A DNA stretch of 64,000 nucleotides from Streptacidiphilus sp. 4-A2 (lineage in GTDB: Bacteria > Actinomycetota > Actinomycetes > Streptomycetales > Streptomycetaceae): assembly GCA_014284505.1 (NCBI GenBank), contig JAAFYY010000001.1, positions 5,381,845 to 5,445,844 of the forward strand, in the 5' to 3' direction. Each line of letters begins with the position of its first letter. The stretch's first letter is position 1. Below the pieces are notes generated by a model. The model ran no database searches. It was not told where the DNA came from and saw nothing but the letters and a program-made list of their open reading frames with translations. Positions 28,835 to 52,936 of the stretch are shown piece after piece. Made by a program: the position numbers and the translations under genes.

Positions 28835-31672
28835 TCAGGCCTCTGTGGCTTCTGCGTCCTGCTTCAGCACCCAGCGGGTCAGGGCCACCCGGCTGGACAG
28901 GCCGAGCTTGGAGAAGGTGTGCCGCAGATGGCTGTCCACGGTGTGCGGTGAGAGGAAGAGCCGCGCCGCCACCTCGCGGTTGGTGAGGCCCTCGGCGACC
29001 AGCCGGGCCACCTTGATCTCCGAGCGGGTCAGCTGGCTCCAGGCCGGGGAGGCGCGCCGGGCCGGCTCTGCCGCGGGCCGGGTTTCCAGGGGACGGCCGA
29101 GCCGCTCGGAGACCCGGTCGGCGTCCAGGCGCAGACCGGCCGTCGTGAACAGGGCCAGTGCCTCGCGGAGGAAGTCCGTCGCCTCGTGGCGGTAGCCGGT
29201 CTGCTGAAGCACCGCGCCCAGGTCCTCCGGGCCTCGCGCGCAGTGGCGTCCTGGGGCTGTCCTGGTAGGCCTCGACGGCGGCCCGCAGCATCGCCGGTCG
29301 CCTAGTCGCACCGCCGGGTCGCCTCCAGCAGTCCACGGGTGTGGGTGTCCGCGGCGGCCAGCGACAGACAGCCGTGGTTGCGCCGGGACAGTTCGCTGAT
29401 GGAGTCCGCCACGAGGCGGGCGACATCCCGGGCGCGGGTCCGCAGGGCGAGCCGCGCCAGTCTCGGGGCGGCGCCCGGCTCCTGGGTGAAGAGCACCACC
29501 CGGGCCGGCAGGCCGCGAACAGCGGGTTCAGGGTCTCCATCGCCTCCTGCGGCCGGCCTTCGGCCTCCTGGAGAGGGCGGTGCACCACATCAGGTCCTCG
29601 GTCCGCGAGCCGATGCCCTCCCCGGCGAGGCGGCGGGCGCCGTCCAGCCGTTGGCGCGCGGCCGCCAGGTCGCCCGCATGCATGGCCAAGCGGGACAGCA
29701 TGGCCAGCAGCGGCACGCCCATGGCCATCATGGAGAGCTGTTCGGCGATGCGCAGTCCGGCCTCGGCCTCGGCCACCGCGTCGTCGACCAGGCCGCGGGC
29801 CAGCCACAGTTCGGCCCGGTGGTAGTGCCACAGCGGCTGCGACCAGGCGGTGCCGAACCGGTGGGCCTCGCGCTGGCCGTACTCGTAGACGGCAGCGGCC
29901 TCCGTGAAGCGGTCCGCGGCCGCCATGGCGGCGCCCAGCCAGAGCCGCGGGTGGAGCTGCGCCGCCGCGCCGCCGTGCTCGTCGGCGATCCGGACCGCCT
30001 CGCCGGCCAGCGTGACGGCGGTGGCGATGTCGCCGGAGGCCTGCGCGGCGATACTCTGGGCGCGATGCCGAGGGCCATCGACGGGTGCTCGCGCCGAGCC
30101 GCGGGCGAGCTGGACGGCCTGGTCGGCCGCCGCCGTGACGTCCTCCAGGGCGCCGGTGTTGAGCAGCGCGTGGGCCTTGATGGCCAGCACCTGGGCGCGG
30201 ACCGGGTCGACACGCCCGGCAGTGCCAGCGCCCGCTCCGCGTAGTGGACGGCGGCGGCGTCCTGGCCGGCGTGCTTGAGCGCGGAGGCGACCCCGTACAG
30301 CAGCATCGCCTCGGTCTCGGGGGACATGCCGTCCGCAGGACCGCCTCGCCCAGTTCCTGCGCCTCGGCCAGCCGGCCGACCCTGGACAGCAGGCCGACCG
30401 CCTCCGCGGCCAGGCGCGGCCGTGCGCTGTGGTCCTCGCCGATGGCCTTCAGCGTGCGCAGGGCCAGGTCCGCGGCGGTACTGGGCGCGGTGCGGGCAAG
30501 CTGCTGGATGGTGTGTGCAGCGCGTCCACGGCCTGGCTGCTCCAGTGCGAGCTGCCGTAGATGAGGTGCTCGGCGATCTCGCTGGCCGGCCGGTTCTCGG
30601 CGCGCAGCACGGTGACCGCCTCGCGGTGCAGCACCCTGCGCACCGGACTGGGTATGGCGCTGAGGACGGACTCCCGGATCAGGTCGTGCCGGAACGCCAG
30701 CTCGGTCCCGGTCTCCATCAGCGCGTCCTGCTGCATCGCCTCCTCGGCGGCGGCGACGAGTTCGACGGCCCGCCGGCCCCACAGGCCCGCCGCCTCGTGC
30801 ACGGTGAACGGGCGGCCGAGCACGGCTCCCGCTTCGAGCAGCCGGTGGGCGTCGGGCGAGAGGCCGTGCAGGTGGCGCCGGACCGCGTCGACGAAGCCGG
30901 CCGGCAGGTCGGCTCCGTCGACGCCGTCACCGTCGGATCGGCGGCGCCGGCGGAGGCCGACAGCGGCTTTTCCCGGCTGCGCCGCCGGACCAGCAGCTCC
31001 TCCAGCAGGAAGGGGTTGCCGGCGCTGCGGCGGGCCAGCCCGAGCAGGCCCCGGTCGGGCTCCCGGCCGAGCAGCGCCGCGGACAGGGCGTGCACGGCGT
31101 CGTCGTCGAGCGGGCCGAGCTCGATGCGCTCGACGCCCTCCTGGATCAGCAGGTCGACCACGCCGCGCCCGGGCGATCGGGTGGGTGCGTTGCGACAGCC
31201 AGAATCCACAGGACGGGGACGACGCGAGCGAGGGGACCAGCAGCCGCAGCGCCAACGCGCTGAGCTCGTCGGCCCATTGGACATTGTCGATGGCGATGAG
31301 CAGCGGCCGCCGGGCGACATGGCGTTCAAGTCGTTCGCCGAGCTGGTCGATCAGCCAGAACTGGCTGGCGGCCGGGTCACCGAGCTGGTCGAACTTGTCG
31401 ATGACCGGGGGTGAGCCGTTCGTGAGCGGGCTGAGCAGGGTACTCAGGGGCGCGACATGGTCGAGTTCGGTTGCCTGGCCCACGGCCGTGGCCATGCCGA
31501 GTTCGGTGGCGTACGCGGTAGCGGCGGCCAGCAACCGGCTTTTCCCGATTCCGGGCGCACCCTCGATGATGAGACATTCACCGGCGCCACCCATCGCATT
31601 GTCCGTGTTGTCCAACGCCTTGCGGATACGAGCCAGTTCCCGCTCTCGTCCGACCAAGGGTGCCATGGTCAT
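28835..31672 (-). CDS. LAL-family (large ATP-binding LuxR/MalT-type) regulator of the biosynthetic cluster
   Basis: About 945 aa when repaired. N-terminal AAA/NACHT-like ATPase begins APLVGRERELARIRKALDN with Walker A EGAPGIGKSRLL and Walker B LLIAIDNVQWADELS. A long TPR-like helical middle follows. The C-terminal LuxR HTH reads LTRSEIKVARLVAEGLTNREVAARLFLSPHTVDSHLRHTFSKLG. ATG at 31670-31672 with GGGGGAG upstream. It is the most damaged gene of the window, with about eight one-base breaks between 29230 and 31190. It closes the minus-strand arm of the cluster and is its likely pathway activator. Confidence 0.85.
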
Positions 31673-31949
31673 CTGTGTATTCTCCCCCGAATCCACGCAC
31701 ACCGTTGACTGCTCCCTCGGACCTCCTGATGTGCCTCAGTCGGTCCGCAGCGAAAAGGTCGCACACGGCCACTGTATGGTCGAGTGACCAAATCGCGTCA
31801 ACTTCGATCCACTTGGAATGACGGGGCCTTCAACATCCTCGTGCCGGCGCTCGCAGCGGTCGGGACCGCGGTGGAGATGGCGGAAATCGGACAAAGCGCC
31901 GGCGCCCGACGGGCCTCGGCCGTCGGGCGCCGGTGACGCGGGGGTGCGG

Positions 31950-33156
31950 TCAGAAGCACCTGTCGATCAGTTGCCGCCCCTGTTCCGGGCTGAGCCGCGG
32001 GTCGCACAGCGTAGTGTAACGATGCGTCAGATCCTGTTCGGCGACCGGGCCGCCGACGCACTCGGTGACCGGCTCACCTGCGGCTTCCAGGTGGATTCCA
32101 CCCACCGGCACCCCCTGTTCCGCCAGCGTCCGCAGGAAGATCCGCACTTCGCCGACGAGGGTGTCGAGATGGCGGGTTTTCAGGCCGTTGGCGGCGGTGA
32201 CGGTGTTGCCGTGCATGGGTCGCAGAGCCACACCGCCGGATGCCCGCCCTCCCGGACCGCGGCGACCAGTCCGGGCAGCGCCTCGGCGGCACGTTCCCGT
32301 CCCATCCGCGCAATCAGGACGAGCCGCCCCGGCGTGCGGTCCGGGTCGAGCAGTTCACAAAGTCGCCGTAGTTCGTCAGGTCGGGCGGTCGGTCCGACCT
32401 TGCAGCCGACCGGGTTGGCGATGGAGCGGAGCATGCGCACATGCACCGAGTCCGGGTCGCGGGTGCGCTCGCCGATCCACGGCAGGTGGGTGGACGCCAG
32501 GTATGTCCCGAGTCGCGGGTCCTCGCGCAGCAGACCGGCCTCGTAGTCGACCACCAGGGCCTCGTGACTGGACCAGGGGCCGAGCGACCGGTCGCCGTGC
32601 CCCGCCGCCCGCTCCGCCGCCGCGCGCGCGGAGCGGTGGTCGTCCACCCAGCCCAGCGTGCGGGAGGCGGCCTGGTACGCCCAGAGCATGCGGCGGGGAT
32701 CGGCCTGGCGGGCGGCCCGGCCGCCACCTCGGAGTTGACCAGATGCCCGCGGAAGGACGGCAGCAGCCGGTCCCCGACCTGTTCGACCGGCTTCGACCGG
32801 GGCTTGGCGTACTGGCCGCCGATGCGGCCGATGCGCACCACCGGACGGCCGGTCCGCTCGCCCAGCAGTTCGGCGAACCCGTCCAGCATCCGCAGCCGGG
32901 CACCGACCGCCTCGGGCGTGCACTCGTAGAAGCTCTCCGCGCAGTCGCCCGCCTGCACCACGACCGCCTCGCCGCGGGCCACCCGGGCGAGCGCCGCCCG
33001 CAGCCGCGGCAGGTCACCGGGCCGTACCAGGGCGGGCGCCGCCGAGAGCGCCTCCATGGCGGACGGGTAGGCGGGGTGGTCGCGCCACTGCGGATTCTGC
33101 GCCGCCGGACCGCTGGTCCACTGGCGCAGGCCGGCCGGCGCGGGGGCGACGGTCAC
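31950..33156 (-). CDS. Class II DAHP synthase (secondary-metabolism, PhzC/AroF-II type)
   Basis: Condenses PEP and erythrose-4-phosphate to feed chorismate to the cluster. Class II motifs are VQAGDCAESF, RIGRIGGQYAKPRSKP, LLPSFRGHLVNSEVA, SSHEALVVDYE, NPVGCKVGPT and CDPMHGNTV, with metal-binding Cys, His and Asp residues. About 403 aa. GTG start at 33154-33156; the upstream context GGTCACGGCGGGGG is repeated twice and lacks a clear ribosome-binding site. Breaks near 32715 and 32220. Lies 37 bases after the preceding gene of the same operon. Confidence 0.92.
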
Positions 33157-33192
33157 GGCGGGGGGGCGGTCACGGCGGGGGCCGTGGCCGGT

Positions 33193-34284
33193 TCATTCGT
33201 CGGCGTCATCGGCGGGCCAGCCCTGTCGGGAGGTGGGAAGCGCGGACGCGGCGCACAGGGCGCCGGCGAGGGTGGACTGGGCCTGCGCGTACTTGACCGC
33301 GGAGGCGGAGCCGGCCTGGGCCGGGACGGTGTGGAAGCCCCCGTGCCGACGGTCGGCCAGGCGGCCGATCGCCGCCCGGGAGACCGCGGTGGCACCGCGG
33401 TCGTCATGACCGTCGGAGCGCAGCACCGCTCCCGCCAGCAGCAGGTACGCGGCGTCGCCGGCGCTGATCCCCACCGTGTCGTCCCTGGAGGCGAAGTGGC
33501 GCACGGCCTGGTCCAGGGTCCGGTGCGCGGCGTCGACCTGCTCGGCCGAGTCCAGCAGCCGGGCCGCGTGGGCCAGCGCCAGCGCGATCCGCGGATCGCT
33601 GCCGGGCGAGGGCAGTTCGCGGACCTGCCGGTCCAGGGTCGCGACCATCTGCGGGAGTTGTTCGGTGTCAAGGTCGGATTCGCCGAGCGCGTCCGCGATG
33701 GCCAGCGCCCGCAGCGCGGCGGCCGCGGTCAGCGGCGAGGGGTTGCCGTCCACCGTCTGTCTCCAGTCCTCGCTGACGCGGCCGGGGAAGGCCCCCTGCC
33801 GACAGGTGCTCAAGCAGCGGTTGAGCAGGTCGACCGCGCGCACCCGGGCGACCGGGTCGGCGGTGTGCCGGCTGCCCACGAGCAGCGCGGTGGCCGCATG
33901 GAACTGATGGCGCAGCGTCCGCGCCCGGCCTGCGGACTGCACCCGCCAGGAGCGGTCCGCCAGCTCGGAGAAGCCGGGCAGACCGTCCCTGTCGAGCAGG
34001 GCGTACAGCCCCTGGAGCGCGACCGGCAGCTCCTGCGGCGCGTTGTCGGCCAGCGCCAGCACCGCGTCGGACTGGTCGGACAGGTGCTTGTGGCCGGTGA
34101 TCGGCGGGCCGCCGACGGCGGGCGCGGCGCGGTGCACCCCGCCCTCCTCGCGGTCCAGGAGGTGCTGGGTCAGCCACCGCGTCGCGGAATGGCTGAGCAC
34201 CTCCGGCGACATGAGCGAACTGCCGGGTGGCGTGCCGCCCTTGAGCGCACTGCCGGGCAGCCCCTCGGCGGGAGTCTGCGGCAT
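33193..34284 (-). CDS. Unrecognised alpha-helical protein in the phzE-DAHP synthase operon
   Basis: 363 aa, intact, ATG at 34282-34284 with GAGGAA upstream. No family recognised. Features are SHSATRWLTQHLLDREEGGVHRAA, HQFHAATALLVGSRHTADPVARVRAVDLLNRCL, EDWRQTVDGNPSPLTAAAALRALAIADAL, and a C-terminal DAAYLLLAGAVLRSDGHDDRGA plus RRHGGFHTVPAQAGSA. Repeated helix pairs with Trp, His and Gly-Gly turns suggest an alpha/alpha-toroid (epimerase or lyase-like) fold. It lies 47 bases from phzE. A catalytic or accessory role in the aminohydroxybenzoate pathway is inference from position only. Confidence 0.65.
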   Translation of the reverse strand: MPQTPAEGLPGSALKGGTPPGSSLMSPEVLSHSATRWLTQHLLDREEGGVHRAAPAVGGPPITGHKHLSDQSDAVLALADNAPQELPVALQGLYALLDRDGLPGFSELADRSWRVQSAGRARTLRHQFHAATALLVGSRHTADPVARVRAVDLLNRCLSTCRQGAFPGRVSEDWRQTVDGNPSPLTAAAALRALAIADALGESDLDTEQLPQMVATLDRQVRELPSPGSDPRIALALAHAARLLDSAEQVDAAHRTLDQAVRHFASRDDTVGISAGDAAYLLLAGAVLRSDGHDDRGATAVSRAAIGRLADRRHGGFHTVPAQAGSASAVKYAQAQSTLAGALCAASALPTSRQGWPADDADE

Positions 34285-34331: not shown

Positions 34332-37990
<3,659 letters not shown>

Positions 37991-38074
37991 GTCGGTCGGC
38001 TCCTTCAGAATCCCGCACGGCCCCCCGCTGGACACGCGGCGTTGCGCACCATCCTCACCGGGCGTCCAGTCCCC

Positions 38075-38273: not shown

Positions 38274-39587
38274 ATGGGCGTGCTGGTACAGAAGTACGGT
38301 GGCAGCTCCTTGGCCGGTGCGGAGCGCCTGGACGCGGTCGCCGCGAGAGTCGCCGAGGCCCATCACCGCGGGGCGGCGACCGTGGTCGTCGTCTCCGCCC
38401 GGGCCGGTGCCACCGACGAACTGCTGGTGCAGGCCGCCGCGGCGGGCGGCTCCGGCTCGGGCTCCGGCTCGGGCTTCGCGGCGGGCTTCGGCTCGGGCTT
38501 CGGGGCGGAACAGCTGCGGGAGACCGACCAGTTGCTGGCGACAGGCGAGAGCGCCTCCGCCGCGCTGCTGGCACTGACCCTGCTGCGCCTCGGCGTGCCG
38601 GCGGTCTCGCTCACCGGTGCCCAGGCGGGAATCGCGGTGGTGGGCAAGCCCAGTGCCGGGATCGTCGACCGGATCGACGTCACCCGGATCAACGAACTGC
38701 TGAACCAGGGCAACGTCACCGTGGTGACCGGCTTCCAGGGCCAGAACGTCCTGGGCGACACGGTCACCCTGGGCCGGGGCGGCTCGGACACCAGCGCCGT
38801 CGCGCTGGCCGCCGCGCTGGGCGCGGAGTGCTGCGAGATCTACACCGACGTCGACGGGGTCTACACCGCGGATCCGACGCATGTTCCCGACGCCCGCAAG
38901 CTCACCTTCATCTCCGCCGCGGTGATGTCGGAGATGGCCTTCGCCGGGGCCAAGGTCCTGCACCCCAGGGCGGTGGAACTCGCCGCGCTGCACCGGGTCG
39001 AGCTGCACGTCCGTACCTCACTCGGAACTCAGGAGGGAACGCTTGTCGGACAAGGAGAGGAAGAGGACCCCATGACCTCGCTGGAAACCGGGGGCGCGGT
39101 CGTGGCCATCACGTCGGACCCCGACGTGGCGCGGGTTCTGGTCCACGCCCGGGGGCGCAGCGATCTCGCGGCCGAGGTGCTGTCGGTCCTCGCGGGGCAC
39201 GCCGTCCCGATGGACCTGATCGCCCGGTCGGGTCCCAACGAGGAGGAGTTCCGCATGGGCTTCACCATCCGCAGGAGCGATGTCGCGGAGGCCGGGCCCG
39301 CACTGGAGAGGGCCGTCGCCGCCCACGGCGGGGAGGTCCGGATCGACCCGGACGTGGCCAAGGTCTCGCTGATCGGCATGGGGCTGCTCAACCGCCCCGA
39401 GTACGTGGCCCGGATGACCGCGCTGCTCGCCGGCGCCGGGATCGCCACCAGCTGGGTTTCCTCCTCCCAGGTGCGGGCCTCCGTCACGGTGCCGGCGGAC
39501 CGGAGGGTGCAGGCGCTGCGGCTGCTGCACAAGGAGTTCGAACTGGCCGGAGAAGACGCCGGCACCAAGCAGACAGTGGCGCTTTGA
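38274..39587 (+). CDS. Aspartate kinase supplying aspartate semialdehyde for 3,4-AHBA
   Basis: 437 aa, intact. Kinase motifs are VLVQKYGGSS, VVVSARAGATDELL and TLGRGGSDTSAVALAAAL. Two C-terminal ACT domains follow (VAITSDPDVARVLVHARG onward, and VAKVSLIGMGLLNRPEYVARMTALLAGAGI). An unusual insert GSGSGSGFAAGFGSGFG at residues 62-80 replaces the loop before the RETDQLLATGE helix. Such dedicated kinases, often insensitive to feedback, accompany the GriI/GriH-type genes that follow. The substrate flux role is inferred from context. Confidence 0.92.
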   Translation: MGVLVQKYGGSSLAGAERLDAVAARVAEAHHRGAATVVVVSARAGATDELLVQAAAAGGSGSGSGSGFAAGFGSGFGAEQLRETDQLLATGESASAALLALTLLRLGVPAVSLTGAQAGIAVVGKPSAGIVDRIDVTRINELLNQGNVTVVTGFQGQNVLGDTVTLGRGGSDTSAVALAAALGAECCEIYTDVDGVYTADPTHVPDARKLTFISAAVMSEMAFAGAKVLHPRAVELAALHRVELHVRTSLGTQEGTLVGQGEEEDPMTSLETGGAVVAITSDPDVARVLVHARGRSDLAAEVLSVLAGHAVPMDLIARSGPNEEEFRMGFTIRRSDVAEAGPALERAVAAHGGEVRIDPDVAKVSLIGMGLLNRPEYVARMTALLAGAGIATSWVSSSQVRASVTVPADRRVQALRLLHKEFELAGEDAGTKQTVAL

Positions 39588-41600: not shown

Positions 41601-42361
41601 ATGGAGCGGCAACCGGTCTTCGATCTGCACGCCCGGTTGCCCGCCGCCCCCGGCGCGCTCGACCGCCTGCTGTCCGCGATGGACAGCAGCGGGGTCGACC
41701 GCGCCGGGGTCGCGGCGGGCGGCGTGATCGATCTGGACGTACTCGCCCGCCAGCTGATCGAGGGCGGGCAGGTGACCTCCGACGCCGACAACCTGGGCGT
41801 GCTGGAGGCCGCGCGGGCCTCGGGCGGCCGGCTGGCCCCGTTCTGGTTCGGCAACCCGCACCACGGGGCGGCCGACTACCGCGCGCACGGCTCCGGGTTC
41901 GCCGCGCTGGAGCTGTCCCCGGCGGTGCACGGGATCCCCCTGGACGATCCGCGCAGCACGGACTTCCTGGACCTCGCGGCGGAGTTCGGGCACCCGGTCT
42001 ACGTCGTCTGCATCGACCGGGACGGCTGCCGGGTGTCGGACCTCGCCGCGCAGGCGGCGAAGCGCCCGCGGACCGTGTTCGTCCTCGGTCACCTCGGCAT
42101 CGGCCTGATCGACACCTACGGGATCGACCTGGTGCGCCCCGTCCCAATGTCGTCGTCGAGACCTCCGGGGGCTTCGGTTTCACCGTCCGGGTCGCCATCG
42201 AGCGGCTCGGCGCCGAGCGGGTGCTCTTCGCCGCGGAGCACCCGCTCCAGCACCCCTCGGTGGAGCTGGCCAAGTACCGGGCCCTCGGCCTGCCGCAGTC
42301 CGTGCTGGAGCAGGTCCTCTGGCAGAACGCCCACCGCATCCTCCGACTGGAGTCACCATGA
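41601..42361 (+). CDS. Amidohydrolase-family (TIM-barrel metal-dependent) protein, possible benzoxazole-forming cyclase
   Basis: About 253 aa after correcting a break near 42130. MERQPVFDLHARLPAAPGALDRLLSAMDSSGVDRAGVAAGG has the D-x-H start of amidohydrolase_2 proteins; FVLGHLGIG, NVVVETSGGFGF and RVLFAAEHPLQHPS follow the barrel pattern. In nataxazole and caboxamycin clusters a member of this superfamily closes the oxazole ring from an ortho-hydroxyanilide. That function here is inferred. It overlaps the ligase start by ATGA, tying the two steps together. Confidence 0.72.
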
Positions 42362-43678
42362 GCCGGCAGTCCTCGGCGCGCCTCCCCCAGCTGGGCGACT
42401 GGCGCGACCAGGAGCAACTCCGCAAGATCCAGGACGAACAGCTCCCCGAACTGCTCGTATGGGCGCGTCAGTCGCCCTTCTACCGGCAGCGCTTCGGCGA
42501 CGGGCCCGCGCCCGCCTCCCGCGGCGACTTCGAGGGCCTCGCCCTGACCAGCAAGCAGGACCTTCGGGACGCCTATCCGTTCGGCATGCTGGCCGTTCCC
42601 AAAGGCGAGCTGGCCACCTACCACGAGTCCAGCGGCACGGCCGGGAGCCCGACTCCCTCGTACTACACCGAGACCGACTGGACGGATCTGGCCGAGCGCT
42701 ACGCCCGCAAGTGGGTGGGCATCGGGCCGGACGACACCTTCCTGGTGCGCACCCCGTACGCGCTGATGATCACCGGTCATCTGGCGCAGGCCGCGGCCCG
42801 GCTGCGCGGGGCGACCGTCGTGCCCGGCGACAACCGCTCGCTGGCCATGCCCTACTCGCGGGTGCTGCGGGTGCTGCACGACCTCGATGTCAGCCTGACC
42901 TGGTCGATGCCGACCGAGATCCTGCTGTGGGCCGCGGCCGCGCGCGCCGCCGGGCTGGTCCCGAACCGCGACTTCCCCGCCCTGCGGGCGCTGTTCGTCG
43001 GCGGCGAGCCGCTCAGCCCCGCGCGCCGGGCCCGGATCAGCGAGATCTGGGGCGTCCCGGTGGTCGAGGAGTACGGCTCCACCGAGACCGGCAGCCTGGC
43101 CGGCGAATGCCCCCACGGCCGGCTGCACCTGTGGGCCGACCGGGCCGTCTTCGAGGTGTACGACCCGCGGACCGGCACGCTGTCGGCCGAGGGCACCGGG
43201 CAGCTGGTGGTCACCCCGCTGTTCCGGCAGGCCATGCCGCTGCTGCGGTACAACCTGGAGGACAACGTCGAGGTCTCCCTCGATCCGTGCCCGTGCGACT
43301 GGCAGCTGCCCACCGTGCGTGTCTTCGGGCGCTCCTCCTTCGGCCACCAGGTCGGTTCCGCGGCCATCACCCAGGCCCGCCTGGAGGAGCTGGTCTTCGG
43401 GCTGCCGGTGGAGTACGGCGTGATGTTCTGGCGCGCGCGCCGGGGCCGATCTCCTCGAAGTCGAGATCGAGGTGGACGCCCGGTACCGGGAGGCCGCCCG
43501 CACCGCCCTGGCGGCCGCCATCGAGGCCGAGTACGGCGCCGTCCCGGCCAGGGTCGAGGGCATCGCGCTCGGCACGCTCGTGCCCCAGGAGGTGCTCACC
43601 GGCGTCCACGACGTGGTGAAGCCCCGCAGCCTGTTCGGTCCGGAGGAGGACTGGAGCAAGGCCCTCCTCTACTACTGA
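42358..43678 (+). CDS. Phenylacetate-CoA-ligase-like adenylate-forming enzyme
   Basis: About 441 aa. ANL-superfamily motifs are TYHESSGTAGSPTPS (P-loop), ALFVGGEPLS, VPVVEEYGSTETGSLAGEC (A5) and AMPLLRYNLEDNV. The C-terminal PaaK-like region ends VKPRSLFGPEEDWSKALLYY. It activates an aromatic acid as the AMP ester (or CoA thioester); both aminohydroxybenzoates are candidates. One base missing near 43438. Translationally coupled to the amidohydrolase, as expected for activation followed by condensation and ring closure. Confidence 0.85.
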
Positions 43679-43767: not shown

Positions 43768-44988
43768 TTGGCAGAGGCACCCCCGAGGATCGCGATCGTC
43801 GGCGCCGGCATCGCCGGTGTCGCACTCGCCGTAGCGCTGTCGAAGCGCGGCCTCGCCTGCGACGTGTTCGAAAGGGCCCGGAACCTGCGTGAGATCGGCG
43901 CGGGAATCCAGATCTCGCCCAACGGCTCCCGGCTGCTCATCGCCCTCGGTCTGGGCCGCTGTCTGGACCACATCGGCGTGCGCCCCGAATCGATCGACGT
44001 ACGCACCTGGTCCGACGGTACGACACTGGCCCGGACCGTGCTCGGCGAGGCCTGCGAGGAGATGTACGGCGCGCCCTACCTCGCCCTGCACCGGGCCGGG
44101 CTGCACAGCGCCCTGGTGGAGCAACTGCCCGAGCCGGCCCTGCACCTGGGCATGGAGTGCGTCGAGGTACGGGAGGCCGACGGCCAGGTGACGCTGCGGT
44201 TCGCCGACGGCTTCGAGACCAGGGCGGACGTCGTCATCGGCGCCGACGGCATCCGCTCGGCCGTCCGCGGGCAGCTGATCGGCGACCAGCCCCGCTTCTC
44301 CGGGCAGTCCATCTACCGGGCGGTGGTGCCGGTGGAGGCCTGGCCCGCGGCGAAGGAGCGGCCGCACGTCTCCATCTGGATGGGACCGGGCCAGCACGCC
44401 GTGGCCTACCCGATCCTGGGCGGGAACTCGGTCAGCATCGCGGCCACCGCCCCGGCCGGCGACTGGCGGCGGGAGTCCTGGTCGGCCGAGGGCTCCAAGG
44501 AGGAACTGCTCGACGCCTACGCCGGCTGGGCGCCGGAACTGGTCTCGCTGCTGTCCGCGGCGCCCGAGGTCACCCGCTGGGCACTGTACGACCGCGACCC
44601 GGTGGAGCGCTGGAGCAGCGAGGTCACCCTGATCGGCGACGCCGCGCACCCGATGCTGCCCTTCGGCGCCCAGGGCGCCGCACTGGGCCTGGAGGACGCC
44701 CTGGCCCTGGCCGTCCAGCTGAAGGACGCGACCACCGCCACCGTCCCCGACGCGCTGCGCCGGTACGAGGAACTGCGGCGGCCGCGCGCCGACCAGGTGC
44801 ACCGGTTCATCCGCGAGAACGAGCGCAACCACCATGTCGACGACGGCGACCGGCAGCGCGAGCGGGACGCGGATCTCGACGCCGACTTCGGCCTGCGTCA
44901 GCGGGCCTGGCTGTTCGGCTACGACGCGGTGGCCGAGGCCGGCTCCGGCGTCGCCGGAGCCCAGGGGCAACAGACACCCACCCGGTAA
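43768..44988 (+). CDS. FAD-dependent salicylate-hydroxylase-like monooxygenase
   Basis: 406 aa, intact. Dinucleotide motif [22 protein letters not shown]; middle DG-like motif [18 protein letters not shown]; second FAD motif [30 protein letters not shown]. This is the p-hydroxybenzoate/salicylate hydroxylase group, which acts on small free aromatic acids and can cause oxidative decarboxylation. I favour the TTG at 43768, which has AAAGGA 8 bases upstream; GTG 43747 is in frame. The substrate is probably 3,4-AHBA, 3-HAA or their product. Confidence 0.87.
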
Positions 44989-45009: not shown

Positions 45010-45822
45010 ATGAGCGCCAGCGCTGTTGAATCGACCGAGACCCAGGGAGTGACCGGTCGCGTGGTAGTGGTCACGGGTGCGGGCCGGGGAATCGGGGCGG
45101 CCGTCGCCCGCCTGCTCGGCGCGCACGGCGCGCAGGTGGCGCTCTGGGACGCGGATCCGGTGACGGCCACCGATGTCGCGGCCGAACTCGCGGCCACCGG
45201 CGTGAAGACCGCGGCCATGTGCGTGGACGTGCGCGACAGCGCGGCGGTCGAGGCCGCGGCCGAGCAGGTGGAACGCGAACTGGGCCCGGTGGAACTCCTG
45301 GTGAACGTGGCGGGCGTGCTCCGCACCGGCGCCCTGGTGGACCTCACCGACCAGGAGTGGGACGAAACCTTCGCGGTCAATGTGCGCGGTGTCTTCGCGG
45401 TCTGCCGCTCCGTCGCCGGGCGGATGGCCCGCCGCGGCCGGGGCGCCGTGGTGACCGTCGCCTCCAACGCGGGCAGCGTGCCCCGCGTGGGCATGGGCGC
45501 GTACGCCGCGTCCAAGGCCGCGTCCGTGATGCTCACCAAGTCCCTGGGCCTCGAACTCGCCGCCCGGGGCGTGCGCTGCAACACCGTCTCCCCCGGCTCG
45601 ACCGACACCCCCATGCTGCGGGCCATGTGGGACACGGCCGGCGACGGGGCGGACGACGCCACCGTGCGCGGCTCGCTCGACGCGTTCCGCGTGGGGATTC
45701 CGCTCGGCCGGGTCGGCACGCCGGAGCAGGTCGCCCAGGCGGTCCTGTTCCTGCTCTCCGACCAGGCTTCCCACATCACCCTCCAGGACCTCTGTGTCGA
45801 CGGCGGAGCGGCGCTCGGCTGA
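45010..45822 (+). CDS. Short-chain dehydrogenase, probable 2,3-dihydro-3-hydroxyanthranilate dehydrogenase
   Basis: 270 aa, intact. NAD motif [29 protein letters not shown], the catalytic Ser in [24 protein letters not shown] with YxxxK, and C-terminal [10 protein letters not shown]. Next to phzD it matches the EntA-like dehydrogenases that aromatise DHHA to 3-hydroxyanthranilate in benzoxazole pathways. Generic SDR sequence alone would not prove this. Ribosome-binding site AGAAAGG upstream. Confidence 0.82.
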
Positions 45823-45858: not shown

Positions 45859-46526
45859 ATGGCGATCCCGCCGATCCGCCCTACGCGCTGCCCACCGAGA
45901 GTGAGCTGCCGCCCAACCGCGTGTCCTGGATGCCGTCGGCCGACCGGGCCGTGCTGCTGGTGCACGACATGCAACGATACTTCCTGGCACCCTTCGACCG
46001 CACCGCCGAGCCCGCCGGATCCATGCTGCACAACGTCCGCGCACTGCTCGACCTGGCCCGCGCCAGTGGCGTGCCGGTCGTCTACACCGCCCAGCCCGGC
46101 GACATGGACCGCGAACAGCGGGGCCTGCTCCAGGACTTCTGGGGGCCGGGCATGAGCAGCGCGCCGCACGACCGTGAGCTGCTCCCGGAGATCGCACCCG
46201 CCCCCGACGAGACCGTGCTGACCAAGTGGCGGTACAGCGCCTTCCACCGCACCGGACTGCTGGAACTGATGCAACGTCAAGAGCGCGACCAGCTGCTGGT
46301 GGTGGGCGTCTACGCCCACATCGGCTGCCTGGCCTCGGCGTTCGACGCCTTCGCCAACGACATCCAGCCCTTCCTGATCTCGGACGCGCTGGGTGACTTC
46401 GGCCCTGCCGAGCACCGGCAGGCACTGAACCAGGCCGCGGACCGCTGCGCCGCCGTGCTGACCACCCGCCAGGCGGTGGCGCACTGCGGCCCCGCAGCAG
46501 CCGCGAAACCGGGGAACCCGCGTTGA
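45859..46526 (+). CDS. phzD: Isochorismatase PhzD (ADIC to 2,3-dihydro-3-hydroxyanthranilate)
   Basis: About 223 aa. Very close to phenazine Phz[18 protein letters not shown] (catalytic Asp), [41 protein letters not shown] (catalytic Lys) and [34 protein letters not shown]. Hydrolyses the vinyl ether of ADIC and releases pyruvate. AAGGAGA 7 bases before the ATG. One C lost near 45882 separates MAIPPIRP from [12 protein letters not shown]. Confidence 0.93.
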
Positions 46527-46557: not shown

Positions 46558-47100
46558 ATGCCAGACATGAGCTTCGACGGATTCACATTGGCACCGGGTG
46601 AGGGCCGTCCCATCGGCCACCAGGTCAATCTGAAGGTGGGCCAGACCCACACACCCAACCTGCTGGCCGTCGAGTGCGAGTTCGCGCCCGGATTCGACGT
46701 CGGGGCACACAGCCACTCCACCCACGAGGAGGTCTTCTACGTCCTTGAGGGCGAGGTGGAGTTCTTCGCCTTCGAGCCGAAGGTGCTCACCTCGGAGCCC
46801 GGCTCGTGGACGACCTGGGAGTCCAAGTCCGGACAGAAGGTCACCCGGGCGACCCCCGGCACCGTGCTGTACGTGCCGAAGGGCTGCCCGCACGGCTTCC
46901 GCAACCCGGGGGACGTCCCCATGCGCTTCCTGCTCGTGGGGACGCCGGCCGGCCACGAGAACTACCAGCAGGACATCGCCGACCTGCTCGCCCAGCGGCT
47001 CACCGACGAGGCCGAGCTGCAACGGGCGGTGGAGGAGATCCGGCGCCGGCACCACACCAACCAGCTGACACCGGCGGTCCGCGCCCCTTCCGACATTTGA
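46558..47100 (+). CDS. Cupin-domain protein
   Basis: 180 aa, intact. Single beta-barrel with cupin motif 1 [20 protein letters not shown] (three His and Glu for metal) and motif 2 [18 protein letters not shown] (His). The C-terminal helical tail is [30 protein letters not shown]. Could be a dioxygenase, isomerase or metal-dependent condensing enzyme. It is not 3-hydroxyanthranilate dioxygenase by visible motifs. Start at ATG 46558 or 46567. Last gene before a hairpin. Confidence 0.8.
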
Positions 47101-47126: not shown

Positions 47127-47128
47127 TC

Positions 47129-47266: not shown

Positions 47267-47945
47267 GTGCCTGACCAACCCCGCACCATCACCATGTGGT
47301 CCGACCTGAGCTGCCCCTGGGCGACGCTCGCGCTGGACACGCTGCACGCCGAGGCGCAGCGGCTGGACGTCGAGCTGACGGTGGATCACCGCGTGTTCCC
47401 GCTGGAGCTCTTCAACGAGATGGCCACCCCGAAGCACATCATCGAAAGCGAGATCGTCGCCATCGCCGCCAGCCATCTGAGCGGAGGGGCTCTGGGGACG
47501 CCCCCGCGCACACCTACCCGGTCACCATGCTCCCGGCGATGGAGGCGGTCCAGGCCGCCAAGGACCCGGCCGTGGGCGGCCTGCCCGGCAGCGACCAGCT
47601 CGACGCCGCGCTGCGCCGCGCCTTCCTGGTGGACAGCAGGTGTGTGAGCGTCCCCTCGGTGATCCTGGAGGTGGCCGGGGAGTGCCCGCTCGTCGACACC
47701 GACCGGCTGGCGGACGCGATCGCGCGGGCAGCGGCCGGGCCGAGGTCTACCGGGACTGGGAGGAGGCCAGGCGGATCCCGGTCCAGGGCAGCGCGACGCT
47801 GTTCGGCGCGGACGGGGAGCCGCTGCACAACCCGGGCGTGCGGTACCACTGGTCGAAGGCCGCGACCCCGCTGGAAGGCGGCTTTCCGGTCGTCGAGGGC
47901 TACAGCCGTGAGTGGGCCGCCACCCTGCTGGGCAAGAAGGACTGA
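47267..47945 (+). CDS. DsbA/FrnE-like thioredoxin-fold oxidoreductase
   Basis: About 227 aa. WSDLSCPWATLALDTLH is the FrnE active-site region, but only one Cys is present (S-C-P-W). Later elements are DHRVFPLELFNEM, FLVDSRCVSVPSVILEVA and YRDWEEARRIPVQGSATLFGADGEPLHNPG. GTG at 47267 with AGGAGG 8 bases upstream. Breaks near 47505 and 47740. Single-Cys members include glutathione-type isomerases and FrnE-like chaperones; members occur in aromatic polyketide clusters. Role here unknown. Confidence 0.75.
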
Positions 47946-48086: not shown

Positions 48087-48148
48087 GCGACGACATGGCG
48101 GGGCGGCGATGCTGCGTACGTCTCCCCGCTAGCGGAGGTTTGGAAAGC

Positions 48149-49799
48149 ATGAATAACGTCCCCGTAGTCGTGGTCGGAGCCGGCCCGGTCGGGATGATGA
48201 CGGCACTGGAGCTGGCCCACCACGGTGTGCCGTGCCTGCTCGCCGAACAGAATTCCGGCCCCAGCGAGCACCCCAAGATGGAGTTCACCAATCCCCGGAC
48301 GATGGAGCACCACGCCCGGCTGGGGACGGCGGACGACATCCGACAGGCCGGCGTGCCCGCCGAGTACCCCTTCGACGTGCTCTCTCGACGGGCTCGACGG
48401 TGAGCGGCTGGCGATCTGGCAGCAGCCCTCGGTCGAGCAGAAGTGGAAGGAGATCCGGGAGAGCCGGGACGGCGGGCAGCCCAGCCAGCCGTACCAGCGG
48501 ATCTCACAGGCCCAGCTGGAACCGGTGCTGCTCGACCACTGCCGCCGTCACCCGCTGATCGACGTCCGGATGAACTGGCGGTTCGAGTCGCTCGAACAGG
48601 ACGCCGACGGCGTCACCGCCACCGTCCGGGACCTGACCACCGACACCTCGCTGACGGTCCGGTCGGCGTACCTCGCGGCCTGCGACGGCGCCGGCAGCAC
48701 GGTCCGCCGCGCCCTCGGGATCCCGCTGAGCGACGGCGGCGTCGCGGACGGCGAGGGCGGCGGCGTCCGCGAGCTGCCGGCCGCCTTCTCGGTCACCTTC
48801 CGCAGCTCCGACACCGAGAACCTGTTCCGGCACGGCTACTTCTGGCACTACTTCACCAACCGCTATGTGCTGATCTCCCTGGACGAGGCCGGAACCTGGG
48901 CCTTCCACTCGCTGCGGCAGGAGGACTTCGACCCGGCGCCGGCCGATCCGGCCGCATGGATCCGCTCCCAGCTCAACGTCGACCTGGACATCGACGAGGT
49001 GCATGTCACCTCGCGGTGGACGCCGAGGTACCTGATCGCCGACCGCTACCGGTCCGACCGGGTGCTGCTGGCCGGTGACGCCGCGCACCAGATGTTCCCC
49101 TCCGGCAGCCACGGCATGAACACCGGCGCGGGTGACGCGGTCGACCTGGGCTGGAAGCTGGCAGCGGTGGTCAACGGCTACGGCGGGCCGCACCTGCTCG
49201 ACAGCTACGAGGCGGAGCGGCGGCCGGTCGGCCTGCGCAACATGACCATGTCCCGCCGGCACCTCGACGTGCACTTCCAGTTCATGCGCCTCGGCCAGGA
49301 GGGCGCGACGCCGCAGGAGCAGGGCCGGTTCCTCGCGGCCCAGCCGGGCGAGAACACCTACGAGGGGATCTACCTGGACTACCGGTACACCGGATCCCCC
49401 ATCATCTGCCCCGACGGGAGCAGCGAGCCCCGCGCCGACCTGCTGCGCTACATCCCCAGCAGCTGGCCGGGCGCCCGGCCGCCGAGCCTGGTGCTGGCGG
49501 ACGGCGATCAGCTCTTCGACCGCTTCGGCCGTGAGTTCACCCTGCTGGACACGGTGGACGACGGAACGGCCGACGCGCTGCTGGCGGCCGCGGCCGAACG
49601 GGGCCTGCCGGTCAGCCATGTCGTGGTCAAGGACAACCAGGTACGCGATCTGTGGGGCTGCGACCTGGCGCTGGTTCGCCCGGACCAGCATGTCGCCTGG
49701 CGCGGAAACAGCTCCCCCGCCGACCCGTTCGCGGTCATCGACCGGATCCGGGGCGCGGCGGACGGCAGAACGCCGCAGGAGCAGGCAGCACATTCATGA
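48149..49799 (+). CDS. FAD-dependent aromatic monooxygenase (PheA/TfdB family)
   Basis: About 550 aa. VPVVVVGAGPVGMMTALELAHHG at the N-terminus, YLAACDGAGSTVRRALGI in the middle, and [36 protein letters not shown] as second FAD motif. Thioredoxin-like C-terminus with HVAWRGNSSPADP. ATG at 48149 after GGAAAG. One base lost near 48385. Same subfamily as 36352-37990, sharing RYLIADRYRSDRV-like and VDLGWKLAA segments. It may hydroxylate ring positions of the same scaffold. Confidence 0.88.
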
Positions 49800-49820
49800 C
49801 GGGCACGGTGAATTCGCTTT

Positions 49821-51270
49821 ATGGAGGCGTCAGTGGCGACCGAGCAGTTTGAAACAATCAGTACGGCCCGCGGTGACGCGGGAACAGCGAACGGACGGGC
49901 CTGGCTCGTCCTCGCGCTGGTATGTGCCTGCCAGTTCATGGTGATTCTGGACTCTTCCATCGTCAACGTCGCCCTGCCGACCATCCGCGGGGCCCTCGGC
50001 TTCTCGGACACCGGCCTGGCCTGGGTGGTCAACGGCTACCTGCTCACCTTCGCCGGCTTCATGCTGCTGGGCGGACGGGCGGCCGACCTGTTCGGCCCGC
50101 GCCGGATGCTGGCCGCCGGACTGCTGGTGTTCTCGGCGTCGAGTCTGGTCGCCGGCCTGGCCAACCGATCCGGCGGTCCTGGTGGGATCCGGGTCGCGGA
50201 GGGCGTCGGCGCGGCGATGATGGCCCCGTGCACCCTGGCCGTGATCAACACCGCTTTCACCGAGCCCGGCGAACGCGCCAGGCGTTCGGCGCGTGGGCCT
50301 CCTCCGGTGGTGTCGGCGGCCTGGCCGGCGCCATCGTCGGTGGCGCCCTGACCACCGGCCTGTCCTGGCGATGGGTCTTCCTGATCAATGTGCCGATCGG
50401 CGCGGTCCTGATCGCCGTCGCGCTGACCTCGCTGGCCGCCACGCACAACGCCCGTCGGGAGTCGCTCGACCTTGTGGGCGCGCTCACCGGCACCATCGGG
50501 CTGGCGGCGCTGGTGTTCGGCGTCATGCACATCGTCGGCAACGGCTGGACGTCCGGCTCGGTCATCGGCCCGGTGCTGGGCGGCCTGCTCCTGATCATCG
50601 CCTTCCTGGTGGTCGAGTCGCGCACCGCCAACCCGATGGTGCCGCTGCGGCTGTTCCGGATCCGCAGCATCGCGGTCGGCAACTCCATGCTGCTGCTGTT
50701 CGGCATGATCGCCATCGCCATGTGGTACTTCACCTCGCTGTTCCTGCAGAACGTGCTCGGCCTGAGCGCACTGGAGTCCGGGCTCGGGCAGACGCCCGCG
50801 GCGGTGGGCTTCATGGTGGTCGCCCGCTTCGCCTCCGGCTGGCTGCCGCGGTTCGGTGTGCGGCCCCTGGTGCTGGCCGGCAGCGCCTTCTTCGTGGCCG
50901 GCTTCGGCTGGCTCTCCCTGGCCGGCGCCGGCAGCACCTACGCGGCCGCCGTGCTCGGGCCCACGCTGCTCATCTCCGTCGGCATCGGTCTGACCTTCCC
51001 CACCTTCATGGCCGCGTCGACCGCGAACGCCCCGAGGGTGACGCGGGCATCGTCGGCGGTCTGGCCAACACCGGCAGCCAGGTGGGTGGTTCGATCGGTC
51101 TGGCCGTGCTCACGACCGCCGCCAGCGCCAAGGCCGACGCGATCGTCAAGGGCGGCAACAGCGTGCACGCCCTCGCGGCCGGCTACCAGGTGGTCTTCCT
51201 CATCGCCGCCGGGCTCGCGGTCGCCATCGCGGCGATCAGCCTGCTGGCACCGCGGAAGGAAAACGCCTGA
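49821..51270 (+). CDS. MFS exporter, DHA2 family (14 TM, EmrB/QacA type)
   Basis: About 483 aa after correcting breaks near 50290 and 51035. The first helix and motif are CQFMVILDSSIVNVALPTIRGALGF, then WVVNGYLLTFAGFMLLGGRAADLFGPRRML (motif A). Motif C-like GGLAGAIVGGALTTGLSWRWVFLINVPIG and many hydrophobic segments follow. Proton-driven efflux pump of the drug-resistance type, 21 bases after the monooxygenase. It is the likely self-resistance and export gene of the cluster. Confidence 0.9.
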
Positions 51271-51300
51271 CCCGGGGCGCCACCGCAGCACCTCTTGTGC

Positions 51301-51339
51301 GCCCACCGCCGGCAGCTCGCGACGCTGCCGGCGGTGGGC
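51301..51339 (+). terminator. Hairpin terminator after the MFS exporter
   Basis: GCCCACCGCCGGCAGC (51301-51316) and GCTGCCGGCGGTGGGC (51324-51339) form a perfect 16-bp stem with a 7-base loop, 31 bases after the stop codon. No T tract, as usual for L-shaped actinobacterial terminators. Confidence 0.8.
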
Positions 51340-51413
51340 GCGCCTTCTGCGTCGTACGACCGCTGCCGCGCACAGGACGCGTCCGGCTGCGCGGCCGTGG
51401 CAGCAGGGCCAGT

Positions 51414-51454
51414 AAGGCCCTCGGGGGAGCGTGTGCTCCCGCGAGGGGCCTTTT
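51414..51454. terminator. Second hairpin with T run
   Basis: AAGGCCCTCGGGGGAGC folds on GCTCCCGCGAGGGGCCTT around GTGT, followed by TTTT. A bipartite termination zone with the hairpin at 51301-51339. Confidence 0.65.
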
Positions 51455-51887
51455 CGGCGTCCGGGGCCGACCCGCCCGTGCGGGTGCCCCAGCGGGCCCT
51501 TCACCCGCCGCGGCGACCCGTCCGCCCCGCGCCCCGTCCGCCGCGCCGTCACTGCCGCGCCGGGCCCGCGCGCCCGAAAGCGTCCGACCGCGCCACTGGA
51601 ATCACGCGTCTCCCGGAACCACGCGTCACGGACCTCCGCGAAGGCGCGACAGGGCCGCATCGGAGATCGCATGAATACGTGATGCTCCTCATCTCCCCGT
51701 AGGACAGCCTTTATTCAAGCCTCCGCTGAGTGGCCGGCCAGACGCACTGATCGCGGTCCGTCTGAATTCATGGTGCTAACCGTCGCCGATATCGGCAAAC
51801 CAGGTGCAGGAGCGCATGGTTCGGTCACCAGCCGCGCGTGGAGTGCCACCGGGTATTCACAACGCACTGATTCTGGGAGTGAACAGG
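51455..51887. other. Intergenic region upstream of the methyltransferase
   Basis: About 430 bases without a supported gene. A direct repeat AATCACGCGTC / AACCACGCGTC occurs at 51600-51627 and ATACGTGAT at 51675-51683. These repeat the CGTGAT theme of the other cluster promoters. AT-richer DNA from 51690 to 51800 probably holds the methyltransferase promoter. Confidence 0.45.
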
Positions 51888-52936
51888 ATGTCGGACACCT
51901 CGATCGAACCCTCGACGAGTGCAATCGAGCCGCTGCGTGAGCTCTTCTACGGGCATTACCGGTTCCAGTACCTGAGCGCCGCCTGCCAGTTCGGGCTCTT
52001 CGAGCTGCTCGGCCGCGAGCCCGGCCTCAGCCGCAAGGACGTCGCCGAGCGCCTCGGGATCCAGGAGCAGCCCGCCCGTATCCTGCTGCTCGGCTGCACC
52101 AGCGCCGGTCTGCTGCGCAAGGAGGGTGACAGCTACTTCAACACTCCGGTCTCCGAGCCGCTCGCCGGCAAGCTGGACGACATCCCGGCGGCGTTCGTGC
52201 CGTGGGAGCAGCAGATCAACTACCGGCCGATGTTCTGGTTCTACGAGTCGCTGAAGGAGTACAGCAACATAGGTCTGCAGCGCGAGATCCCCGGGGAGTC
52301 GAGCACGCTGTACGGCCGTCTCGCCGAGGACCCGGCGAAGGAGACCGTCTTCCACAACATGATGGGCTCCGTGAGCCGGGTCATGGCCGAGGAGCTGGTC
52401 GACCGCCTGGACCTCTCCGGGTCACCCACCTGCTCGACATCGGTGGCGGTACCGCGGTCAACGCGACGCACCTCGCGCGTCGCTGGCCGCACCTGCAGAT
52501 CACCATCGCCGACCTGCCGACCGTGGCGGAGCGGGCGAACAAGAAGATCGCCTCGCTCGGTCTGAGCGACCGGGTCCGCGCGGTGGGCCTGGACGTCTTC
52601 AAGGACGAGTTCCCGAAGGGCTGCGACGCCGTCCTCTTCGGTCACTTCCTGGAGATCTGGTCCATCGAGCGCAACAAGGAGCTGATCGCCAAGGCGGCGC
52701 GTGCCGTCGAGCCCGGCGCCCACCTCTTCGTGGCCACGCCCAAGGCGGACGACGACGAGACCGGCCCGGACGTGGCGGCCGCGCTGTCCGCGTACTTCCT
52801 CACCATCGCCTCCGGCGAGGGCATGGTGTACACCATGCGCGAGTACGAGGAGTGGGCCGCCGAGGTGGGCTTCGAGGCGACCGGTCGCCTCCTGGTCGGC
52901 ATCGGCGACGCGGTCATCACCGGCGTCAAGCGCTGA
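51888..52936 (+). CDS. SAM-dependent O-methyltransferase (dimerisation plus AdoMet_MTase domains)
   Basis: About 349 aa. The N-terminal winged-helix dimerisation domain includes ACQFGLFELLGREPGLSRKDVAERLGI. The SAM-binding domain has VTHLLDIGGGTAVNATHLARRWPHL (motif I after restoring a base near 52420), ITIADLPTV, and DAVLFGHFLEIW with YTMREYEEWAAEVGFE. This is the plant-OMT-like family common in antibiotic clusters and should methylate a phenolic hydroxyl. ATG at 51888. The metK gene directly follows, supplying SAM. Confidence 0.88.

What the first reader, a model, noticed from the sequence alone, without database searches (positions are those of the whole stretch)
28835..52936. One gene cluster with both the 3-hydroxyanthranilate and the 3-amino-4-hydroxybenzoate pathways
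Seen: DAHP synthase, PhzE, PhzD and an EntA-like SDR (the ADIC/DHHA route to 3-hydroxyanthranilate) are interleaved with aspartate kinase, a GriI-like aldolase and a GriH-like synthase (the grixazone route to 3,4-AHBA). An ATGA-coupled amidohydrolase and adenylate-forming ligase lie between them, plus three flavin hydroxylases, an OMT and an exporter. Known: ligase plus amidohydrolase pairs build benzoxazoles such as nataxazole and caboxamycin from 3-HAA. Inference: the product is a hybrid of the two isomeric aminohydroxybenzoates (a benzoxazole, amide or phenoxazinone), further hydroxylated and O-methylated. I know of no described cluster that carries both routes.
Basis: partly seen in the sequence, partly recalled or inferred. 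Interest (0 to 1): 0.82.

Follow-up and report, generated by a model that had tools for sequence, protein, structure and literature searches.

The report
Two-precursor cluster, probably diazepinomicin-like scaffold
A soil-bacterium gene cluster really does carry the genes for two different aminohydroxybenzoate building blocks; its core matches clusters that look like those for the antitumour compound diazepinomicin, so it more likely makes a fused dibenzodiazepine-type molecule than the benzoxazole first suggested.

Summary
One cluster carries PhzE, PhzD, an EntA-like SDR and DAHP synthase (3-HAA route) with aspartate kinase, GriI and GriH (3,4-AHBA route). Eight of 17 compared proteins are frame-broken here but intact in the Streptomyces globisporus twin.

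The pairing is conserved: of 19 other actinobacterial neighbourhoods holding this amidohydrolase, 16 also hold PhzE and 19 hold GriI and GriH. Five of the 19 add an ABBA prenyltransferase and HMG-CoA reductase and resemble diazepinomicin clusters. So both routes together look like a diazepinomicin-type core, not a unique hybrid.

The benzoxazole reading weakens. The ligase is NatL2-like, but the amidohydrolase is not NatAM-like, and two of three zinc histidines are replaced in 18 of 20 sequences.

Best reading: an unprenylated, further hydroxylated and O-methylated dibenzodiazepinone, ring A from 3-HAA and ring B from 3,4-AHBA by decarboxylative hydroxylation. That would also change the published AHBA origin of diazepinomicin's ring B. 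The product is inferred; no chemistry was tested, and the published dzm sequence was not read.

The parts
28835..31161 (-). LAL-type regulator (my naming), broken into several frames (AAA_16, weak MalT-like TPR)
   Evidence: Pfam; related fragments (reg1-reg3) occur in many related loci
32183..33171 (-). class-II DAHP synthase, frame-broken
   Evidence: PF01474 E 3.9e-39 and 2.1e-48
33196..34176 (-). protein of unknown family, one open frame, all-helical in a low-confidence model
   Evidence: no Pfam; 83% identical in S. globisporus L004; AF2 pLDDT 58.6
34335..36355 (-). PhzE-type ADIC synthase, three frames
   Evidence: Pfam; intact L004 ortholog best PDB match 3r74, 616 bits against 92 or less for the next
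36355..38008 (-). hyd1, RebC-like flavin hydroxylase, two frames
   Evidence: Pfam; clade apart from hyd3 in the tree
38274..39587 (+). aspartate kinase (AK)
   Evidence: PF00696 plus ACT
39682..40434 (+). GriI-type aldolase
   Evidence: PF01791; L004 ortholog best NCBIfam match BagB/FevI
40481..41587 (+). GriH-type 3,4-AHBA synthase
   Evidence: PF01959 E 1e-108; L004 ortholog matches BagC/FevH 628 bits (cut-off 750)
41601..42361 (+). Amidohydro_2 protein with DxHxR motif, two frames
   Evidence: ATGA overlap with the ligase
42358..43678 (+). NatL2/BagE-type aryl adenylate-forming ligase, two frames
   Evidence: 6siw E 2.7e-160; L005 ortholog BagE/FevW 583 bits (cut-off 800)
43768..44988 (+). 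hyd2, flavin hydroxylase whose solved relatives include decarboxylative 1-hydroxylases
   Evidence: for the G995 ortholog the same top match and the same next relatives in another order
45010..45822 (+). EntA-like SDR (DHHA to 3-HAA)
   Evidence: L004 ortholog over the TIGR04316 cut-off
45867..46526 (+). PhzD (isochorismatase)
   Evidence: best PDB match PhzD 1nf9 E 9e-63
46567..47100 (+). cupin
47267..47945 (+). DsbA-like protein, three frames
   Evidence: L004 ortholog PF01323 E 6.3e-5, 23.3 bits, under its cut-off of 25.6; alignment
48149..49799 (+). hyd3, RebC-like flavin hydroxylase, two frames, grouping with those of ABBA-type clusters (support 80/87)
49890..51270 (+). MFS exporter, three frames
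51888..52936 (+). O-methyltransferase, two frames
53122..54339 (+). S-adenosylmethionine synthetase, may supply the OMT
   Evidence: not between OMT and TetR-like gene in L004
54362..54817 (-). TetR-like regulator (named by eye)
   Evidence: no Pfam; 80% identical in L004
55128..55685 (+). NADPH-dependent FMN reductase
   Evidence: PF03358; 80% identical in L064

Best explanation
A two-precursor cluster with the same core as diazepinomicin-type clusters but without the farnesyl branch. DAHPS, PhzE, PhzD and the SDR turn chorismate into 3-HAA; AK, GriI and GriH turn aspartate semialdehyde and DHAP into 3,4-AHBA (gene identities shown; reactions inferred from the families). hyd2 replaces the C1 carboxyl of 3,4-AHBA with a hydroxyl, and an RebC-like hydroxylase adds the C5 hydroxyl, giving an aminohydroquinone (inferred). 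The NatL2-like ligase adenylates 3-HAA and joins it to this ring through an ester that becomes an amide (inferred). The 3-HAA amine then condenses with the quinone carbonyl that was C4-OH, closing a dibenzodiazepinone. The amidohydrolase, which lacks the usual zinc histidines, may assist that closure (speculative). The further hydroxylase, OMT with MetK, and MFS decorate and export it. The two-precursor part is about 0.9 likely, the dibenzodiazepinone ring about 0.55.
For: Both routes identified. Of 19 neighbourhoods with this amidohydrolase, GriI and GriH in 19, PhzE in 16, hyd2 in 17 (four of the 17 hyd2 hits are only 36-39% identical, and the G745 one is far from the core). In five of 19, an ABBA prenyltransferase and HMG-CoA reductase lie in the same cluster. 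Gene order PhzE / AK-GriI-GriH-amidohydrolase-ligase-hyd2-SDR-PhzD is shared by the window (with hyd1 after PhzE) and G995; the unassigned genes in the G995 operon were an MFS and a DUF485 protein. Each ABBA cluster has at least hyd2 and a hyd3-type hydroxylase, the two hydroxylations that diazepinomicin's ring B needs if it starts as 3,4-AHBA (structure recalled). hyd2's solved relatives include 4-hydroxybenzoate and vanillate decarboxylative 1-hydroxylases. Two of three zinc His are replaced in 18 of 20 amidohydrolases.
Against: No product or activity was tested. No PF11468 match in the window's genome and no mevalonate-gene hits in the window, so it is not diazepinomicin itself. The published dzm cluster was not read; its ring B is assigned to AHBA in print (PMC3871700, PMC6524458, passages). 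Only 6 of the 13 genomes with ABBA hits were fetched, and 3 of those 6 lack the core. The nearest solved relative of hyd2 is tropone 2-monooxygenase, so ipso hydroxylation is not proven. R. rhodnii (L006) has the core without hyd2 in its stretch. The ligase family also makes benzoxazole precursors and aryl esters.
Confidence: 0.57

Rival explanations
1. Hybrid benzoxazole: the ligase joins 3-HAA and 3,4-AHBA as an ester and the amidohydrolase closes it to a benzoxazole.
For: Ligase is NatL2-like with the NatL2 zinc cysteines and histidine present by eye. The amidohydrolase is related to one in a closoxazole-like cluster, L063.
Against: Amidohydrolase not in the NatAM family. By motif, the His77 and His253 equivalents are Arg and Val in 18 of 20; NatAM is zinc-dependent (PMC7204872, passages). 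hyd2, if decarboxylative, removes a carboxyl. The His290 equivalent, needed in NatAM, is kept, which does not speak against this rival.
Confidence: 0.2
2. Aryl ester, amide or phenoxazinone of the two acids, as in bagremycin/ferroverdin or ahbamycin chemistry; the amidohydrolase has another role.
For: L005 ligase ortholog matches BagE/FevW at 583 bits; bagremycin-like L060 and L062 have GriI-GriH-ligase.
Against: In their 20-kb stretches, L060 and L062 show no amidohydrolase, hyd2 or PhzE. A phenoxazinone synthase was not specifically searched for.
Confidence: 0.15
3. The window copy is a decaying, inactive cluster.
For: Eight of 17 compared proteins are in more than one frame.
Against: The fragments stay 61-96% identical to intact S. 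globisporus proteins. Other genes are in pieces too, such as two further metK copies and the second GriH, and completeness is 76.5%, pointing to sequencing indels.
Confidence: 0.08

Closest known systems
Diazepinomicin (dzm, ECO-4601) cluster, known here from passages only, and the ABBA-type clusters G517, G448, G995, G975, G812, read here
   Same: PhzE, PhzD, SDR, AK, GriI, GriH, amidohydrolase, ligase, hyd2 and a hyd3-type hydroxylase in the five ABBA-type clusters
   Different: Window lacks the ABBA prenyltransferase and mevalonate genes; adds hyd1, OMT, cupin, DsbA-like and the unknown 33196-34176 protein
Nataxazole / A33853 / caboxamycin benzoxazole clusters (represented by the 3-HAA-only loci here)
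   Same: PhzE, PhzD, SDR and a NatL2-type ligase
   Different: NatAM-like amidohydrolase in 9 of the 10 3-HAA-only loci instead of this Amidohydro_2 type; no GriI/GriH in their stretches
Closoxazole clusters (clx, pfx)
   Same: GriI/GriH-type genes, ligase and an amidohydrolase (PMC12118335, abstract, introduction and first part of results)
   Different: Two ligases and no 3-HAA genes among the five listed; L063, the closoxazole-like locus here, keeps the zinc histidines
Bagremycin / ferroverdin
   Same: GriI, GriH and BagE/FevW-like ligase
   Different: No amidohydrolase, hyd2 or PhzE in the stretches L060 and L062, which I take as this type
S. globisporus 1912-4Crt locus (L004/L064)
   Same: Whole cluster collinear, matched pieces 61-96% identical
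   Different: metK not between OMT and the TetR-like gene; the 17 compared proteins in single frames

Membership tests
Chorismate/DHHA route to 3-HAA | PhzE-type ADIC synthase, PhzD and EntA-like SDR in one cluster | tested here: met
   (PhzE and SDR also tested on the intact L004 orthologs)
3,4-AHBA (grixazone) route | GriI-type aldolase next to GriH-type synthase | tested here: met
   L004 orthologs over NF005556 and NF002625 cut-offs, under the exception cut-offs of BagB/FevI and BagC/FevH
NatL2/NatAM benzoxazole family | NatL2-type ligase | tested here: met
   residue numbers printed fit those of NatL2 in PMC7204872 after a shift by one
NatL2/NatAM benzoxazole family | NatAM-family zinc amidohydrolase | tested here: not met
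   Amidohydro_2; NatAM-like in 0 of 19 neighbourhoods; zinc His replaced by motif alignment
Closoxazole type | two AMP ligases with a condensing amidohydrolase | tested here: not met
   one AMP-binding ligase among the 30 window fragments scanned; ClxD and PfxB sequences not available
Diazepinomicin type | nine-gene core PhzE, AK, GriI, GriH, amidohydrolase, ligase, hyd2, SDR, PhzD | tested here: met
   the core is defined from G995-type clusters, not from the published dzm sequence
Diazepinomicin type | ABBA prenyltransferase and mevalonate genes | tested here: not met
Diazepinomicin type | dibenzodiazepinone product | not testable with these tools
   needs expression and NMR
Bagremycin/ferroverdin | BagE/FevW model cut-off | tested here: not met
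   583 bits for the L005 ortholog against a cut-off of 800; the broken window ligase was not scored

The most novel reading that the evidence does not exclude
The amidohydrolase of these clusters is a relative of benzoxazole-forming condensing enzymes that has lost its zinc site (His to Arg, Lys to Glu, His to Val together) and now closes the seven-membered dibenzodiazepinone ring from 3-HAA and a 3,4-AHBA-derived aminohydroquinone; this would be the missing ring-forming step of diazepinomicin and would assign its ring B to the GriI/GriH pathway.
Probability: 0.27. Interest if true: 0.8.

Novelty: new variant of a known kind. Interest (0 to 1): 0.6.

Why it matters
Diazepinomicin reached a phase II trial (PMC3871700, passage), yet in the papers seen here the origin of its second ring rests on a 2008 proposal from sequence. 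If clusters of this type make ring B from 3,4-AHBA, that proposal changes, and a rare drug-like scaffold becomes findable by genome mining across several actinobacterial families, with the window cluster as an unprenylated, O-methylated branch. An amidohydrolase that lost zinc ligands but kept a conserved polar site would be a new catalyst to test.

Tried and rejected
Mycemycin (dibenzoxazepinone) clusters were considered and rejected: PMC5867642 (parts 1 and 2 of 4 read) describes kynurenine-route genes and salicylate, not these routes. Microechmycin (PMC9864271, part 1 of 4) is described as 3-HAA based. Ahbamycin (PMC10179220, passages; no hit for 3-hydroxyanthranil or isochorismatase) is 3,4-AHBA based. 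S. globisporus LCY30 (PMC10817512, one passage) concerns phenazines. Identifying any fetched locus with S. griseoflavus Tu4000 or Micromonospora RV115 by the published primers failed: no primer matched. The unknown protein at 33196-34176 gave a low-confidence model, so its fold was not searched. The 'genus' search covered only 14 genomes; the other 13 gave no ligase match at E 1e-60. Literature searches for the two routes together or for the diazepinomicin precursors were. Of the 12 papers opened, none reports both routes in one cluster in what I saw of it; other papers were seen in listings only (in one search, 20 of 855), and only open-licence PMC papers are held.
Full report
OBSERVATION. 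The window is G000:C4:5381845-5445844, in an assembly scored 76.5% complete. Codon-position scoring and comparison with S. globisporus proteins show that 8 of 17 compared proteins (PhzE, hyd1, amidohydrolase, ligase, DsbA-like, hyd3, MFS, OMT) lie in two or three frames here. DAHPS is also broken. Two metK copies elsewhere in the genome and a second GriH are in pieces too, so I read this as sequencing error, though true decay is not excluded.

THE TWO ROUTES. 3-HAA: the intact PhzE ortholog in L004 scores 616 bits against 3r74 (depositors' name anthranilate/PABA synthase component I; recalled as Burkholderia PhzE) and 92 or less against other entries. The window PhzD's best solved match is PhzD 1nf9. 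The SDR ortholog passes the 2,3-dihydro-2,3-dihydroxybenzoate dehydrogenase cut-off. This is the chorismate/DHHA route described in PMC5958127 (passages read). 3,4-AHBA: GriI and GriH orthologs pass subfamily cut-offs and score best against BagB/FevI and BagC/FevH, below those models' own cut-offs.

RELATIVES. The one genome-contig scan with the ligase gave 11 loci, L004-L014. The genome search found the ligase (E 1e-60) in 9 of 394 class genomes and 17 of 394 family genomes, both including the window's own; the amidohydrolase (E 1e-25) was in 3 of 394 class genomes, again including the own. Neighbourhoods were fetched. tabulates 36 neighbourhoods of up to 60 kb (35 genomes, G517 counted twice; window not counted). 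Left out of that table: L047 (own second locus), L053 (duplicate of L012), and L116/L117 (G823), L124/L125 (G108) and L126 (G898), fetched for an ABBA gene; one search shows no PhzE, ligase or amidohydrolase hit in the last three genomes' stretches. Of 19 with this amidohydrolase: GriI and GriH 19, ligase 18, hyd2 17, PhzE 16, PhzD 15, SDR 14, AK 14, DAHPS 8. P. ovalisporus, G671 and G655 have no PhzE in the fetched stretch; the first two have a PhzD-like gene elsewhere in the genome, G655 none at E 1e-20. Of 17 without it, 10 are 3-HAA-only, of which 9 have a NatAM-like amidohydrolase, 2 are GriI/GriH-ligase (bagremycin-like) and 5 have the ligase alone. NatAM-like and this amidohydrolase share no neighbourhood (0 of 19). 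Presence was called by identity thresholds that I set per gene, so distant members can be missed; hyd2 at 36-39% in D. sucinum, P. ovalisporus, D. vinaceum and G745 is near its threshold (the first three lie next to the ligase).

DIAZEPINOMICIN LINK. Five of the 19 (G517, G448, G995, G975, G812) also hold an ABBA prenyltransferase and HMG-CoA reductase, four of them with further mevalonate-route genes and G448 with HMG-CoA synthase. G517 and G448 were found by the ligase. Of 13 genomes with an ABBA hit (3; 10), I fetched six of the better-scoring (G108, G823, G995, G975, G812, G898); three hold the both-route core, three do not, and seven were not looked at. Pfam confirms PTase_Orf2, HMG-CoA synthase, HMG-CoA reductase and polyprenyl synthase in G517. 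PMC3871700 (abstract, passages and one methods section read) says the dzm prenyltransferase orf11 is flanked by HMG-CoA synthase and a two-component sensor gene, and that the cluster has PhzE-, PhzD- and MxcC-like genes, with ring B speculated to come from AHBA. G517 and G812 have HMG-CoA synthase next to the ABBA gene; G995 has HMG-CoA reductase there. PMC5958127 lists dzm orf33, 19, 27 and 26 as the DAHPS/chorismate-DHHA genes. If that list is in pathway order (PhzE 19, PhzD 27, SDR 26), six ORFs lie between PhzE and SDR, as in G995 (AK, GriI, GriH, amidohydrolase, ligase, hyd2). The list can also be read otherwise, and I could not read the dzm sequence. In the G995 operon the genes that no query of mine matched were an MFS and a DUF485 protein, so I saw no AHBA synthase gene there, but no specific search for one was run. 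So the two routes together very probably occur in diazepinomicin-type clusters, and ring B from 3,4-AHBA is my reassignment.

CHEMISTRY (inferred; diazepinomicin structure recalled). Mapping 3,4-AHBA on ring B: N3 becomes N10, C4-OH becomes the carbonyl that takes N5, C1 is hydroxylated with CO2 loss (8-OH), and C5 is hydroxylated (6-OH). Each ABBA cluster has at least two matching flavin hydroxylases, hyd2 and a hyd3-type; G448 also has a further ORF with a flavoprotein-like start, not identified (L049 6681). hyd2's solved relatives are tropone 2-monooxygenase first, then 4-hydroxybenzoate and vanillate decarboxylative 1-hydroxylases and 6-hydroxynicotinate 3-monooxygenase, in differing order. 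The window adds hyd1 (clade apart), OMT, metK, MFS, cupin and DsbA-like. Saccharothrix luteola (L014) shares hyd1, hyd3, OMT, MFS and DsbA-like.

AMIDOHYDROLASE. It is Amidohydro_2, while the 3-HAA-only locus L012 has a protein scoring 825 bits against 6sj0, an amidohydrolase entry recalled to be NatAM; it and those of L051 and L056 are Amidohydro_1. The ligase's best match 6siw is recalled as NatL2; its residue numbers fit those given for NatL2 in PMC7204872 after a shift by one. In 19 aligned amidohydrolases plus the window, the HxH motif is HxR in 18 of 20. The strand-4 Lys is Glu and the strand-5 His is Val in the same 18; L061 and L063 keep His, Lys, His. In the AF2 model (pLDDT 91.5) these positions sit in or just after barrel strands; the best-ranked folds are dihydroxybenzoate decarboxylases, at 16% identity. 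NatAM binds zinc through His75, His77 and His253, and H290A is inactive (PMC7204872, passages). The His290-equivalent H164 is kept. Equivalence is by motif, not by superposition. The site has changed in concert rather than decayed, so another reaction is likely. hyd2 goes with the change: 16 of 17 HxR neighbourhoods have it (R. rhodnii does not). Of the two HxH ones, G655 has none and G745 has only a 37% match far from the core.

RARITY AND LIMITS. Sampled genomes are one per species and unnamed; rows share ancestry, so the counts are not independent. Trees pair the window with S. globisporus (100/99) but leave the deeper order of both-route loci unresolved. Masses in the next steps were computed by hand.

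LITERATURE SEEN. PMC12118335 abstract, introduction and first part of results; PMC9864271 part 1 of 4; PMC5867642 parts 1-2 of 4; PMC3871700 abstract, passages and one methods section; PMC6524458, PMC7204872, PMC10817512, PMC10886168, PMC10179220, PMC5958127, PMC11093986 and PMC4583450 passages. McAlpine 2008 was not read. In what I saw of these 12, none reports both routes in one cluster or 3,4-AHBA as a diazepinomicin precursor (searches).

Noticed in passing
L061 and L094 (G745): AK-GriI-GriH-ligase with an amidohydrolase that keeps the zinc histidines, and 3-HAA genes about 17-21 kb away: a better candidate for a true hybrid benzoxazole.
   Followed up: partly
window 33196-34176 (-): 326-aa protein without any Pfam family, 83% identical in S. 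globisporus, not found in the other 18 neighbourhoods with the amidohydrolase.
   Followed up: partly
G000:C4:2644453-2665499 (L047): A second, frame-broken GriI/GriH locus with hydroxylase fragments and its own metK; the genome has metK at four places.
   Followed up: partly
window 53122-54339: metK sits between the OMT and TetR-like genes here but not in S. globisporus.
   Followed up: no
L091 8031-9443, L119 17443, L092 18861: Haloperoxidase-like gene (DUF6851, VCPO second domain) recurs in ABBA-type clusters, along with DUF6081 and a second SDR.
   Followed up: no
L006 (R. rhodnii): Smallest both-route locus: no AK, hyd2 or RebC-like hydroxylase found in the stretch; its genome holds three PhzD-like genes.
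   Followed up: no
L062 (G517:C2): The same genome holds an ABBA-type cluster and a separate bagremycin-like GriI-GriH-ligase locus.
   Followed up: no
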